Source: Verrucomicrobia bacterium SCGC AAA164-E04 | GTDB taxonomy: Bacteria > Verrucomicrobiota > Verrucomicrobiia > Limisphaerales > AAA164-E04 | Reading direction: 5' to 3' | Assembly (NCBI GenBank): GCA_000383715.1 | Contig: KB911851.1 | Span: forward strand, 10,997-74,996 | Length of the DNA: 64,000 nt | Part shown: positions 48,310 through 53,301 of the stretch, piece after piece | How positions within the stretch are numbered: the first letter of the stretch is position 1 | Layout: every line of letters begins with the position of its first letter | The notes under the pieces: model-generated | The model's database searches: none | Seen by the model: the letters and a program-made list of their open reading frames with translations, nothing else | Told to the model about the DNA's origin: nothing | Translations under genes and position numbers: made by a program

Positions 48310-48582
48310 ATGTCAAAAGCAATCATGGATCCGGAAGAAGTTCGACGCTTCGCGAAGGAGTTGAAGCACTTTAATGCAGGCCTTCAGCAGGGAATGACTT
48401 TGCTGGATGCGCGGTTCAAGGCGCTTGGCGACAGTTGGCAGGATCAGGAACACCAACGCTTTGCAGAGGAATTCAGTCAGACCATCCGGGCTTTGAAGAA
48501 ATTTGTTGAAGTGTCGAACGAACATACTCCCTTCTTGCTTCGCAAAGCGCAGCGGATCGAGGATTATCTGGAGCAACGATAG
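48310..48582 (+). CDS. WXG100-like small helical protein
   Basis: The 90-residue protein is predicted to be almost all helix. A central turn GDSWQDQEHQRFAEEF (Trp at residue 43) separates two helices. Size, helical hairpin and a W-x-x turn with a following F-x-x-x-F are those of WXG100/ESAT-6 secretion substrates; here the turn is W-Q-D, not W-x-G. No signal peptide is present. It has a good ribosome binding site and ends 2 bases before the next gene. Together with the 69-residue protein at 49166 it could form an Esx-like heterodimer. Assignment is by pattern, not by search. Confidence 0.72.
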   Translation: MSKAIMDPEEVRRFAKELKHFNAGLQQGMTLLDARFKALGDSWQDQEHQRFAEEFSQTIRALKKFVEVSNEHTPFLLRKAQRIEDYLEQR

Positions 48583-48584
48583 CC

Positions 48585-49169
48585 ATGCCCTCAAAGGCTC
48601 AGATACATTCGGTGGACGCTTTGGAATTGTTCCGGGTGAAGCTAGTTCAGTACCTCGAAAAGTCGATCACGACCATGGATGAAGTCGGTAGCGATCTCAA
48701 GCGGACGCTGATCTGGCTGGAAGAACAGCAAAAACCTTTTTGGGAACATCAAGTGCGTCTCAAACGGCGTGCTCTGGAGGAGATGCGAAATGAAATCTTT
48801 GCAGCCAAGCTCTCACAGATGCGTCATTCCAGCGATGCACAGCAAGTAGCCCTTCAACGCGCCAAGCAAGCCTTTGAGGAAGCCGAAGAAAAGCTTCATC
48901 GAGTAAAAAAGTGGTGTCGTCGATATCAAAGCGACGTGGAACCGCTGGGGCGTGAAGTGGAAAAACTCCAAGCGGTCATGTTTCAGGACCTGAAACAAGG
49001 CGCCGCTCTCCTTGATCGAATCATTCGTACTTTGGAGGATTATGCGGATCGACGTAAATCGCTTGATTCGGATCGATCGGACATAGTTGAGGCTTTGGAG
49101 GGGGGAACTGGTTTGCCGGATCAGCGGGCTAGCGAAGTCAACAAGGAGTTGGGAGGGTCGGAATCATGA
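48585..49169 (+). CDS. Coiled-coil protein of T7SS-like operon
   Basis: The 194-residue protein has no signal peptide. It starts with VDALELFRVKLVQYLEKSITTMDEVGSDLKRTLIWLEEQQKPFWEHQVRLKRRALEE, then a long charged helix (about 55-150, rich in Gln, Glu, Lys and Arg). I recall similar proteins next to FtsK/WXG-like genes in Planctomycetota and Myxococcota, but no name exists for the family. The position between two WXG100-like genes suggests a chaperone, adaptor or LXG-like substrate. The start is 2 bases after the previous stop, and its stop overlaps the next ATG. Confidence 0.75.
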   Translation: MPSKAQIHSVDALELFRVKLVQYLEKSITTMDEVGSDLKRTLIWLEEQQKPFWEHQVRLKRRALEEMRNEIFAAKLSQMRHSSDAQQVALQRAKQAFEEAEEKLHRVKKWCRRYQSDVEPLGREVEKLQAVMFQDLKQGAALLDRIIRTLEDYADRRKSLDSDRSDIVEALEGGTGLPDQRASEVNKELGGSES

Positions 49170-49375
49170 GTTTGCACGCACGCAATCAATTAATGGCATT
49201 GACCAAAGATCTTCTTCGAACATGGGAACGAACCCGATCGGTTTGGAAAGATAGCAAGGCGGACGCATTCGAACGCGACTACATCAAGGAACTTGAATCA
49301 AGCGTGAACCGAGCCGTGCATGGGATGGAAAAGCTGGATGTTATCTTGAAGAAAGTGAGGAAAGATTGTGGCTAA
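49166..49375 (+). CDS. Second WXG100-like small helical protein
   Basis: The 69-residue protein is a predicted helical hairpin. The turn region is RSVWKDSKADAFERDYI, with W27-K-D where WXG100 proteins have W-x-G, and a following aromatic at the usual spacing. It is shorter than typical members (about 100 residues). The start has GGGAGGG upstream and overlaps the coiled-coil gene stop (ATGA). The stop lies inside the ATPase start (GTG 49368), so translation is coupled. Confidence 0.65.
   Translation: MSLHARNQLMALTKDLLRTWERTRSVWKDSKADAFERDYIKELESSVNRAVHGMEKLDVILKKVRKDCG
49357..49360 (+). promoter_or_regulatory. Ribosome binding site that points to GTG 49368
   Basis: GAGG at 49357-49360 lies 7 bases before the GTG at 49368. 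It supports translation beginning in the frame MAKILTAGQSISTLEKLRQTMEELG rather than at the TTG at 49366, which lies in the frame of the ATPase body. This is the key sign that the long gene needs a frameshift. Confidence 0.6.
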
Positions 49376-52300
49376 AATACTCACAGCAGGTCAATCGATC
49401 TCAACCTTGGAAAAGCTCCGCCAGACCATGGAGGAGCTGGGGGGGGCGCGAGAAGGCGTTGATCGCATCACGCGATCGCGAATTAAAGTCCATTCAGCAA
49501 AAATCTGCGTTGGAAAACGCGCGCTTCAAACGACAGGCTGAAGCTGAAACACAAAAGGCGATGGAAGCTCTGAATGAGGAGCGCATTCGACTCGAATCCC
49601 ACTTTGCCGCGCGCAAGGTTCGTATTGATCATGCTTATGAGAATGCGCAGAAGGCATTGAATGAGACCGCCGAGCAAACGCGCAGTCAACAGAAGTATGA
49701 AAATCAAAAAGAACTTTTGCAGGCCAATCGCGCGCATGAAGCGGACCTGCAATCGGTGGATCATGCCGGGAAATCTTTTTCGGCTGAATTATCAAATGAG
49801 ACCCAGCGTCTTGAGAGTAGTGGTGGGCTTGGTTGGAGGGTTTTCAAAGGTTATGGTAATTTCAGGAAGTGGCTGCGAGATGGAGGACAACCTTCTCCTG
49901 GCGAAGTAAGCATCCAAGATGAGCATGCATTGCTTGAGTCATTGAAATCCCAGTTGACTGAGCTCGAATCGTCTCTCGCTTTTTCCGTTCACAACGCTCT
50001 GGCCCGCATCTTCTCCTTCGTCTCCATCTGGCTGATCCTGTGTTGCCTTGGCATTGGCGGAGTGATTGTATTCCTGTTACCACAGGTATCCGATGCCATT
50101 GGTGCAACTCAGAACCGGATCTTGATGGGGTTCGGGGGTATGGGGGGGCTGGTAATGATTGTATACGCGATGGGCTACATCCTGGCCCAAGGTGCCGCAC
50201 GCTCCTTCGTGAATTTATTCGCAAATTGCACCGGCTTGATCGAACAATGCCAAGTTGCCGCCAATCGAAGTCGTGAGGATGCCACGGCCTCTGCGCGCGA
50301 AGTTCTTCAGACCATTGAAAGCCGTCTCGAAGTCGCATGGCTTGATGCCGATGTTTCGGCGACAGAACAATGTGAACGCGGACTCAACAAGCTGTTACCC
50401 CAGCGAAACCGTTTGGTGGCGCGGCATGAATCGATGCTTGCCACTGCGCTGAAACGCTTGGGTGAGAGCAGGTCCTCAGGATTGGATGATGGAAATTTTG
50501 CTTTCCACGAGAAGGATGAAAAAGGTGAAAGGGATCAACAGGACTTGCAGACTGAGGTCATACGTCGTTTTGATCAGGAAATCGGAGACGTCGTTTCTGA
50601 TTGGAATCGATTGATTCCTGCGTGGTGTTCAGACCTCAACACAAGTCGGGAATCCGTTCGGCAGATGGAACAGACGTGGAATACCGCATCCACGCAGGGA
50701 TGGGAAGTTCCGCTTTCAGGGGAACCGGCTGGCTGCTTTGCTCAAATCACAATCGATTGGAAAGAATTTGCCCCATCGGTTCCTGTTGATTCGAGCATGC
50801 ACTTGCCAAAAGGCGCATGTTTGCAAGTACCCATGGTCTTCAAGATGCCCTTGGGAGAATCGGTTTTGTTTGAATCAGAAGGACCAGCTCCTGAGCAAAT
50901 TATCGAGGCCATCAATCATACCGCGCTGGAGCTCCTGTTGACCGCTCCTGCAGGGCGGATGAGGTTTACCCTGATCGATCCGGTCGGTCTGGGTAAAAAC
51001 TTTGCAGGGTTGATGCACCTTGCCGATTATGACGATCAGTTGATCAATCGACGTATCTGGACCCAACCGAATCAAATTGAACAGTGCCTGCTCGATTTGA
51101 CGGAACACATGGAGAAGGTGACACAAATGTATCTCCGCAATGAATACGACACGCTGGCCGAATACAATCAAGTCGCAGGCAATATCGCGGAAAAATATCA
51201 TGTGCTGGTCGTTTCTGATTTTCCCACGGGATTCAGTGAATCTGCCTTGCGTAAATTACATAATATCGCCGTCAGTGGAGCCCGCTGCGGGGTGTTCTTG
51301 CTTCTGCATCGTGACCGTCGTCAGGCAATGTCCGAAGACGCTGTGGTTCACGACCTGCGCGAACATTGTGTTTGGATTCAATCACAAAAGAAGGGATATC
51401 GATTAGGGGCGCATGCATGGACGGGCGTTCATTTGAATTGGATGGATCGAGTCAAATTTCAGGACACGGTTCATCTTATCCATCAGATAGGTCAAGCCAA
51501 TGTCGATTCGAATCGCGTGGAGGTTCCGTTCTCGCAAATCACTCCCAAGCCTGATGCATGCTGGACTCAAGATACCAGCGCTTCATTGAAGGTTCCCATT
51601 GGGCGGACAGGTGCTTCGAAATTGCAGTATCTGACGCTCGGTAAAGGCACTCAGCAGCATGCCCTCATTGCTGGGAAAACTGGTTCAGGTAAGTCAACTT
51701 TATTTCATGTCATCGTCAGCAATCTTGCACTTTGGTGTAGTCCAGACCAGGTCGAGTTCTATCTCATCGATTTCAAGAAAGGCGTTGAATTCAAGTGTTA
51801 TGCTGCGCATAAACTGCCTCATGCCCGCGTGGTTGCGATTGAGAGCGATCGTGAATTCGGCCTCAGCGTGTTGGAGCGAGTGGACCAGGAACTCCGTCGG
51901 CGTGGAGACTTGTTCCGTGAAAAAGGGGTCCAGGATCTAGCGAGGTATTGTTCCGCTGAGGATACACAGCCCCTGCCTCGCACACTCCTGATGATTGATG
52001 AATTTCAGGAATATTTTGTCGAAGATGATCACGTGGCTCAAAACGCAGCGGTTTTGCTGGATCGTATTGTTCGCCAAGGGCGCGCGTTCGGGATTCATGT
52101 GATTCTGGGATCGCAGACGCTGGGGGGCGCCTACACCCTGGCTCGCACTACTTTTGCCCAGATGGCGGTTCGCATTGCACTTCAATGTGATGAGGCGGAT
52201 TCTTATCTGATCATGGATGAGAACAATGCCGCACCCAGACTTCTCTCCCGTCCTGGTGAAGGAATATACAACAACAGAAACGGCGCAGTGGAAGGAAACA

Positions 52301-53301
52301 GTCCGTTCCAGACGGTCTGGCTGAATGACGACGAGCGAGACACATATCTACAACAGGTGAGCACCCTGGCTCAAAACCATGCGTCGAAGGAAACGGGTCC
52401 TGTGGTCTTTGAGGGGAACGCCCCCGCCGATATCAGGGATAACCATGAGCTTGCCGTCGCCCTGGGGATCGAACCTTCCGGCGGTCCAGAAGAGACCTGC
52501 GCCTGGCTGGGGGCTCCCAATTCCATTAAGGGTCCGACAGGCGCTGCCTTTGGTGCGCAAAGCAGCAGTAACCTTCTGATCATCGGTCAGAATGAAGAGA
52601 TGGCCTTTTCAATGATCATCAGTAGTTTGATTTCGCTTGCGGCACAACAATCCTCAGATCGGGCCGAGTTCATTGTTCTGGATGCCTTTCCAGATCATTC
52701 TGCCAAGCGTGAGATGATGGATCAGGTCATCGCCATGCTGCCGCATCGAGTCAGGTCATTGAAGGATGAGCGACTTGAGGACATCATGGAGCGACTTGAA
52801 ACCCATATGGATCAGCGTACCGAGCATGGAGCCGTTCATGGCGAAATATACTTCATCGTGATTGGACTTCAGTTGTTCAAGAAGCTAAGGCCCGAGGACG
52901 AATTCAGTTTTTCCGTAAATGACGAAGAAGGTGACTCAAAGCCTGGTGCCGTATTGGATCGAATCATTCGTGAAGGATCCAGCCTTGGGGTTCGGGTTTT
53001 AGCGACGATGGATTCCTACAACAGTAGTCAACGATTTCTAAACCGAAAAGCACTCTCGGAATTTGAGATGCGCGTGCTTTTTCAGATGAGTGCGAACGAT
53101 TCAGCGGCGTTGATCGATCATACCAAGGCCAGTCAATTGGGACTTCATCGGGCTCTTTTCTACAACGAACGACGTGGATATACTGAGGTGTTTCGCCCCT
53201 ATGCCATGCCCGATGGATCCTGGCTATCCAATGTACGAGACCATTTTGGAAAACGTTCGGCGCGCCTCAGTAAAAGCTCCGGAGATACCTGCACTCCCTA
53301 G
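49368..53301 (+). CDS. FtsK/SpoIIIE (EssC/EccC-like) secretion ATPase with apparent frameshift at a G8 tract
   Basis: The body (about 1310 residues) has an N-terminal coiled coil, two membrane helices (near residues 215-240 and 254-278), more coiled coil, then three ATPase-like modules. The first lacks a P-loop (MRFTLIDPVGLGKNFAGLM). The second is complete: Walker A GKTGSGKST (51673-51699, about residue 770) and Walker B LLMIDEF (about 874). The third is degenerate (NLLIIGQNEEMAFSMI). This is the layout of T7SS motor EssC/EccC. GTG 49368 with GAGG upstream opens a frame (MAKILTAGQS...EELG) that stops near 49541. The body lies in the frame +1 to it, and the switch falls at eight G (49439-49446). 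One G less restores one protein. Confidence 0.8.
49439..49446 (+). repeat. Eight-G tract at frameshift point
   Basis: Eight consecutive G residues lie in codon 24-26 of the ATPase gene. Reading the GTG-started frame past it gives a stop about 30 codons later; reading with one fewer G enters the ATPase frame. Similar G-runs occur at 12659-12667 (nine), 42282-42289 (eight) and 53829-53835 (seven), but those keep their genes in frame. Confidence 0.6.

What the first reader, a model, noticed from the sequence alone, without database searches (positions are those of the whole stretch)
48310..53301. Type VII secretion-like operon in a Gram-negative bacterium
Two short helical proteins with W-x-D turns (at 48310 and 49166) flank a coiled-coil protein. 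A membrane-anchored FtsK/SpoIIIE ATPase of three tandem modules follows. The gaps are 2 bases, then overlaps of 4 and 8 bases. This set is like the EsxA/EsxB-EssC core of Firmicutes and Actinobacteria, but in a bacterium with an outer membrane and without EssA/EssB/EsaA or EccB/D/E homologues in view. The coiled-coil gene has no named family that I know. It could be a separate lineage of T7SS, or a related FtsK-driven machine with another task.
Basis: partly seen in the sequence, partly recalled or inferred. Interest (0 to 1): 0.9.

Follow-up and report, generated by a model that had tools for sequence, protein, structure and literature searches.

The report
Stand-alone type VII-like motor operon
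This is a conserved four-gene operon of Verrucomicrobiota (bacteria with an outer membrane) that encodes two small type VII-secretion-like hairpin proteins, a long helical carrier without any toxin part and a membrane-anchored pump motor; it looks like a toxin-less, membrane-bound branch of a poorly studied relative of type VII secretion, and no function has been shown.

Summary
The four genes are real, at the stated coordinates. Protein 1 is WXG100 by Pfam's cut-off. Protein 3 (69 aa) is predicted as a short W-x-D hairpin and resembles WXG100 proteins by profile and fold. Protein 2 is a long two-helix hairpin. The ATPase has an N-terminal coiled coil, two TM segments and three FtsK-like modules; only the central one keeps a P-loop. 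The operon is intact in all 67 loci long enough to show it, across Verrucomicrobiota, single-copy, without conserved neighbours. Its ATPase groups not with the EssC/EccC core but with the Gram-negative WXG100/FtsK family (HP0062/HP0066, TerY-P/CoCoNuT loci). There, the place of protein 2 holds a coiled-coil protein with an extra, nuclease-like domain; here that domain is missing and the ATPase has a membrane anchor. WXG100+FtsK pairs in Gram-negatives were noted before (2011, 2012, 2024) but never tested. Best reading: an inner-membrane motor handling a WXG100 pair and a helical carrier. Export is plausible but unproven: no YxxxD/E signal, YukD or YukC was found. The window's ATPase carries a one-base frameshift in a G8 tract (G7 in the nearest relative).

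The parts
48310..48582 (+). Gene 1: WXG100 protein, 90 aa, W43-Q-D45 turn
   Evidence: Pfam WXG100 39.9 bits vs cut-off 27.3; nearest solved structure HP0062 of H. pylori, E 2.7e-10; one per genome in 34 of 58 relatives
48585..49169 (+). Gene 2: helical hairpin 'carrier', 194 aa, with a variable low-confidence tail (about residue 173 on)
   Evidence: AlphaFold2 pLDDT 83, H8-76 and H83-172; no Pfam family above cut-off; hhalign to the N-terminus of a Rhodococcus 314-aa multidomain protein 85-88%, decoys at most 2.5%; one per genome
49166..49375 (+). Gene 3: short WXG100-like hairpin, 69 aa, W27-K-D29 turn, conserved C-terminal Cys68
   Evidence: AlphaFold2 pLDDT 90, H3-26/H30-68; top Foldseek hits EsxE/EsxF, also ESAT-6/CFP-10, EsxB, HP0062; hhalign to WXG100 of TerY-P loci 90%
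49366..53301 (+). Gene 4: membrane-anchored FtsK/EccC-type ATPase, 1311 aa as an open frame; natural start GTG 49368 is out of frame with the body in this assembly
   Evidence: T7SS_EccCa 122 bits, FtsK_SpoIIIE 105 bits; full-length homologues in about half of 97 relatives
49439..49446 (+). G8 tract carrying a +1 frameshift relative to relatives; the GTG 49368 frame stops at 49539-49541
49987..50175 (+). ATPase hydrophobic segments (residues 208-245 and 252-270), putative TM pair
   Evidence: hydropathy; at least one such segment in 68 and two in 57 of 70 full-length homologues
51565..52245 (+). Central, probably active ATPase module: Walker A 770-777 (51673-51696), Walker B D878-E879 (51997-52002)
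   Evidence: both motifs invariant in the 25-sequence alignment; single P-loop motif in 61 of 70 homologues
52483..53235 (+). C-terminal degenerate FtsK-like module without Walker A
   Evidence: EccCb profile spans residues 736-1152; no P-loop motif in it

Best explanation
It is a stand-alone WXG100/FtsK machine of Verrucomicrobiota. Gene 4 makes an FtsK-class motor (hexameric by analogy) anchored in the inner membrane by two TM helices, with a long coiled coil in front and one active ATPase module. Genes 1 and 3 make two WXG100-type hairpins, one full-length and one short, that probably pair with each other or with gene 2. Gene 2 makes a long helical hairpin that derives from, or corresponds to, the N-terminal docking part of the nuclease-like effectors carried at the same place by TerY-P/CoCoNuT and Helicobacter relatives; here the effector domain is absent. 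The most likely action is that the hairpins dock on the motor and are pushed through or into the inner membrane using ATP, as in type VII secretion. Shown: the genes, their conservation, the predicted folds of proteins 2 and 3, the kinship of the ATPase and of proteins 1 and 3. Inferred: hexamer, docking, translocation, topology.
For: Gene 1 is WXG100 above the curated cut-off. Gene 3 is WXG100-like by fold and by profile. The ATPase is closest to EccC/EssC among named families and closer still to FtsK genes beside WXG100 genes in Gram-negatives. Four-gene unit in 67 of 67 loci and in deeper branches of the phylum, with no shared flanking genes. Helicobacter carries a colicin-DNase/WHH protein plus SUKH immunity in the same place; Verrucomicrobiota themselves carry TerY-P-type copies with a large coiled-coil protein in that place. 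Hairpin-to-effector link: Rhodococcus 85-88% against decoys of at most 2.5%. TM segments are present in nearly all stand-alone ATPases and absent in all four TerY-type copies of the phylum.
Against: YxxxD/E export signal in 0 of 67 and 0 of 71 homologues of proteins 1 and 3. No YukD or YukC in 12 genomes. No outer-membrane or periplasmic partner and no effector gene found. P0002 is not clearly similar to the coiled-coil nuclease-like proteins of the TerY-P loci themselves (6%). All function is inferred.
Confidence: 0.5

Rival explanations
1. An intracellular stress or anti-phage machine, as proposed for TerY-P/CoCoNuT loci: the motor and hairpins act on nucleic acid or on other proteins at the membrane, and nothing is exported.
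For: The nearest relatives sit in TerY-P/CoCoNuT loci with CARF, kinase, phosphatase and nuclease genes; no export signal.
Against: The stand-alone operon has none of those partner genes as conserved neighbours, no nuclease domain, and a TM pair that the TerY-type copies lack; PADLOC gives only generic FtsK/HerA-type matches for the ATPase and weak matches for gene 2.
Confidence: 0.27
2. A toxin-delivery system whose effectors are encoded elsewhere and dock on the hairpin of gene 2.
For: Kin operons carry nuclease-like and immunity genes in this place.
Against: Only one gene-2 homologue and one WXG100 per genome, so no family of effectors with the same docking domain.
Confidence: 0.13
3. A true type VII secretion system of the EssC/EccC lineage (T7SSa/b-like) moved into a diderm.
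For: WXG100 and EccC-type hits.
Against: The ATPase lies with the Gram-negative WXG100/FtsK family, apart from EccC/EssC-type and SpoIIIE (98/93 support); one P-loop as a rule against three in Streptomyces EccC; YukD/YukC absent; no YxxxD/E.
Confidence: 0.08

Closest known systems
WXG100/FtsK module of TerY-P and type III-A CoCoNuT loci (Anantharaman 2012, as cited in PMC11090510; PMC4978471)
   Same: WXG100 protein with W-x-D turn, second small helical protein, coiled-coil protein between them, three-module FtsK ATPase with N-terminal coiled coil and only the central module active; ATPase in one clade
   Different: Here no nuclease-like domain, no kinase/phosphatase/VWA/CARF genes, two TM segments in the ATPase, and a gene 3 that is WXG100-like and not detectably related to the small protein of the TerY-P loci
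H. pylori HP0062/HP0066 and the Helicobacter plasmid operon
   Same: WXG100 (HP0062 is the best PDB match of gene 1) and FtsK ATPase in one operon
   Different: The Helicobacter plasmid operon carries a colicin-DNase/WHH protein with SUKH immunity; its ATPase has no TM pair
Type VII secretion (EsxA/EsxB + EccC/EssC)
   Same: WXG100 hairpins and an FtsK-class motor; EccC is the nearest solved relative
   Different: No YukD or YukC, no YxxxD/E, one P-loop as a rule, separate ATPase branch
WXG100+FtsK pairs reported in Verrucomicrobia, Lentisphaerae, Proteobacteria, Cyanobacteria (Sutcliffe 2011, as cited in PMC6471051, PMC10765036)
   Same: Very probably includes this system
   Different: The original was not held; the papers that cite it say function was not confirmed, and they do not describe the four-gene unit

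Membership tests
WXG100 family (gene 1) | Pfam PF06013 above gathering score | tested here: met
   39.9 vs 27.3 bits
WXG100 family (gene 1) | W-x-G in the turn | tested here: not met
   W-x-D in 67 of 67; HP0062 has WRD (PMC3397514)
WXG100 family (gene 3) | Pfam PF06013 above gathering score | tested here: not met
   no match for P0003; one weak match (E 0.08) among 26 homologues
WXG100 family (gene 3) | Helix-turn-helix with the W motif at the turn | tested here: met
   Foldseek top hits EsxE/EsxF, though E-values are above 1 as for any short hairpin
Type VII secretion system | EccC/EssC-family ATPase with WXG100 gene | tested here: inconclusive
   EccCa profile 122 bits, below the equivalog cut-off of 509; ATPase falls in a separate branch
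Type VII secretion system | C-terminal YxxxD/E or HxxxD/ExxhxxxH on a WXG100 protein | tested here: not met
   YxxxD/E 0 of 67 and 0 of 71; extended pattern absent in P0001, present by simple match in P0003
Type VII secretion system | YukD/EsaB and YukC/EssB | tested here: not met
   0 of 12 genomes each, B. subtilis control positive
Type VII secretion system | EccB | tested here: inconclusive
   0 of 12, but no control genome rang
Type VII secretion system | WXG100 protein secreted depending on the ATPase | not testable with these tools
   needs experiment
Gram-negative WXG100/FtsK (TerY-P/CoCoNuT/HP0066) family | ATPase grouped with that family, apart from EccC and SpoIIIE | tested here: met
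   98/93 support; 204-457 bits vs at most 108
Gram-negative WXG100/FtsK (TerY-P/CoCoNuT/HP0066) family | Coiled-coil protein with nuclease-like domain between WXG100 and FtsK | tested here: not met
   gene 2 is 166-200 aa in 70 loci, too short for a C-terminal domain
TerY-P / CoCoNuT system | VWA, kinase, phosphatase, McrBC/CARF partners nearby | tested here: not met
   no shared neighbours in about 60 flanks per side

The most novel reading that the evidence does not exclude
A minimal diderm type VII-like exporter: four genes only, with a membrane-anchored motor, two different W-x-D hairpins and an effector-free helical carrier, related to a family whose other members carry nuclease-like effectors, and kept as a single-copy trait across Verrucomicrobiota.
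Probability: 0.35. Interest if true: 0.85.

Novelty: new variant of a known kind. Interest (0 to 1): 0.62.

Why it matters
WXG100+FtsK pairs in Gram-negative bacteria have been listed since 2011 without any tested function. A compact, invariant four-gene unit in many Verrucomicrobiota genomes, cultured isolates among them, makes the question of whether type VII-like export exists in a diderm directly testable. It would also show how a nuclease-carrying machine and an effector-free, membrane-bound one derive from each other.

Tried and rejected
Foldseek of protein 2 in PDB: no match under E 0.001, only generic coiled coils. Viral contigs: no relative of the ATPase, so no sign of a phage origin. 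PADLOC: no system assignment. Profile comparison of gene 3 with gene 1 of the same operon: no signal (0.7%; 1.6% with more sequences); the link to WXG100 came only through the TerY-P WXG100 proteins. Gene 3 against the small protein before FtsK in TerY-P loci: no signal (0.2%). Gene 2 against Caballeronia, Helicobacter and Deinococcus coiled-coil proteins: no clear signal. An effector family encoded elsewhere with the gene-2 domain: not found in 58 genomes. The first ATPase tree, with EccC modules 2 and 3, had very long branches and was rebuilt without them.
Full report
OBSERVATION. In the window's assembly the natural ATPase start (GTG 49368) is out of frame with the body. Relatives G002 and G003 (96-97% identical ATPase) read straight through a 7-base stretch (G7, and G5+TT) where the window has G8; in the window the GTG frame ends after 57 codons at 49541. 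The rest of the frame is open and 96-97% identical to those relatives, so this is an assembly error, a very recent mutation or a phase-variable tract. Which one cannot be told here.

WHAT THE PROTEINS ARE. Gene 1 passes Pfam's WXG100 cut-off (39.9 vs 27.3 bits); a family profile finds HP0062 of H. pylori (E 2.7e-10) and Bacillus EsxB. Gene 3 has no Pfam match. AlphaFold2 gives a helix-turn-helix (3-26, 30-68, pLDDT 90) with W27-K-D29 at the turn. Its four best Foldseek matches are EsxE/EsxF chains, followed lower down by CFP-10/ESAT-6, EsxA:EsxB, EsxB and HP0062; E-values are above 1 for so short a hairpin, so the enrichment, not the E-value, is the evidence. Its profile reaches WXG100 proteins of TerY-P loci (hhalign 90%; HMM E 8e-5 to 3e-3; 250 helix-rich decoys at most 7.6%, the top one being a gene-2 sequence). 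Gene 2 is a long two-helix hairpin with a low-confidence tail and no Pfam family. Gene 4 matches T7SS EccCa (122 bits, below that model's own cut-off) and FtsK_SpoIIIE (105 bits); its nearest solved relatives are EccC and YukB, ahead of FtsK. It has an N-terminal stretch with coiled-coil composition (read from the sequence), a TM pair near residues 208-270, and three FtsK-like modules with one P-loop.

DISTRIBUTION. A full-length ATPase homologue occurs in about half of 97 relatives. WXG100 and gene 2 each occur once per genome in 34 of 58, gene 1 beside the ATPase. A scan of named genomes gave at least 557 related stretches; the best 80 are nearly all labelled Verrucomicrobiota. Of these loci, 67 hold all four genes, in the same order. 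Deeper branches of the phylum also have the four-gene unit; a broad sample of the phylum at 90% completeness or more has a gene-1 match in only 27 of 384, so it is patchy. Flanking genes are not shared: the commonest neighbour family occurs in 11 loci. dN/dS is 0.05-0.20.

KINSHIP. The ATPase profile scores 204-457 bits against FtsK proteins of related loci in Rhodococcus, Caballeronia, Deinococcus, Helicobacter and TerY-type loci of Verrucomicrobiota, 99-108 against EccC/EssC-type proteins and 49 against SpoIIIE. In the tree of the active module the stand-alone operons form one clade (98/90), and with the TerY-type set they are split from EccC/SpoIIIE (98/93); several rows have long branches and the root is arbitrary. 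In Caballeronia and three Verrucomicrobiota loci the place of gene 2 holds a 399-453 aa coiled-coil protein with a C-terminal domain; by position and layout this matches the coiled-coil plus restriction-endonuclease-like protein described in PMC11090510, although Pfam found no named domain in the two that were scanned. In the Helicobacter plasmid the place holds a colicin-DNase/WHH protein followed by a SUKH immunity protein. One genome (G270) has both a stand-alone and a TerY-type operon (L126, L127). Gene 2 aligns over its whole hairpin with the N-terminus of a 314-aa Rhodococcus protein (85-88%, reversed 0.6%, 300 decoys at most 2.5%). Against the TerY-type proteins the signal is only 6%. 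So 'effector without its effector domain' is supported by one clear profile match and by position, not proven.

MECHANISM. By analogy with EccC and FtsK (family knowledge), gene 4 should form a hexamer driven by its central module. What sets this branch apart is a TM pair (57 of 70 with two segments, 68 with at least one; none in the four TerY-type copies of the phylum) together with the absence of the effector domain. That combination argues for work at the membrane, most simply moving the hairpin proteins. Against it: no YxxxD/E (0 of 67, 0 of 71), no YukD or YukC, no known route across the outer membrane. EccB absence is not shown, because no control rang.

PRIOR KNOWLEDGE. WXG100 in Verrucomicrobiae and other Gram-negatives goes back to Sutcliffe 2011 (cited in PMC6471051 and in PMC10765036, which says functionally unconfirmed). 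HP0062/HP0066 and TerY-P associations are in PMC4978471. PMC11090510 describes three-module ATPases with an active central module, an N-terminal coiled coil, no TM, and two WXG100 proteins, one without WxG, and cites Anantharaman 2012 for stand-alone versions. T7SSc-j (PMC11217815) cover Gram-positives only. What appears new here, within the papers held, is the invariant four-gene, nuclease-free, TM-anchored unit spread over Verrucomicrobiota.

Noticed in passing
window 49439-49446: G8 tract with a one-base frameshift just inside the ATPase gene; 7 G in the nearest relative. Sequencing error or phase variation.
   Followed up: partly
L116 9001-13403 (Helicobacter sp. NHP19-012 plasmid): WXG100 - coiled-coil protein with colicin-DNase/WHH domain - SUKH immunity - 77 aa - FtsK: a toxin-immunity pair inside a diderm WXG100/FtsK operon.
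   Followed up: partly
L127 7654-16134 and L129 5604-15070: TerY-P/CoCoNuT-like loci with VWA genes, WXG100, large coiled-coil protein and FtsK within Verrucomicrobiota; G270 has this and the stand-alone operon.
   Followed up: partly
L130 6476-7936 and L131 2825-4102: WXG100 sequence sits at the end of a 426-487 codon open frame, in frame with an upstream domain of unknown kind; fusion or internal start not resolved.
   Followed up: no
L118 4472-12689 (Rhodococcus pseudokoreensis plasmid): Hsp70, TPR and GrpE genes directly before a related FtsK gene; PMC4978471 lists a DnaK homologue in the H. pylori WXG100 cluster too.
   Followed up: no
L048: MAG titled Proteobacteria whose ATPase lies within the Verrucomicrobiota clade; probably a mislabelled record.
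   Followed up: no
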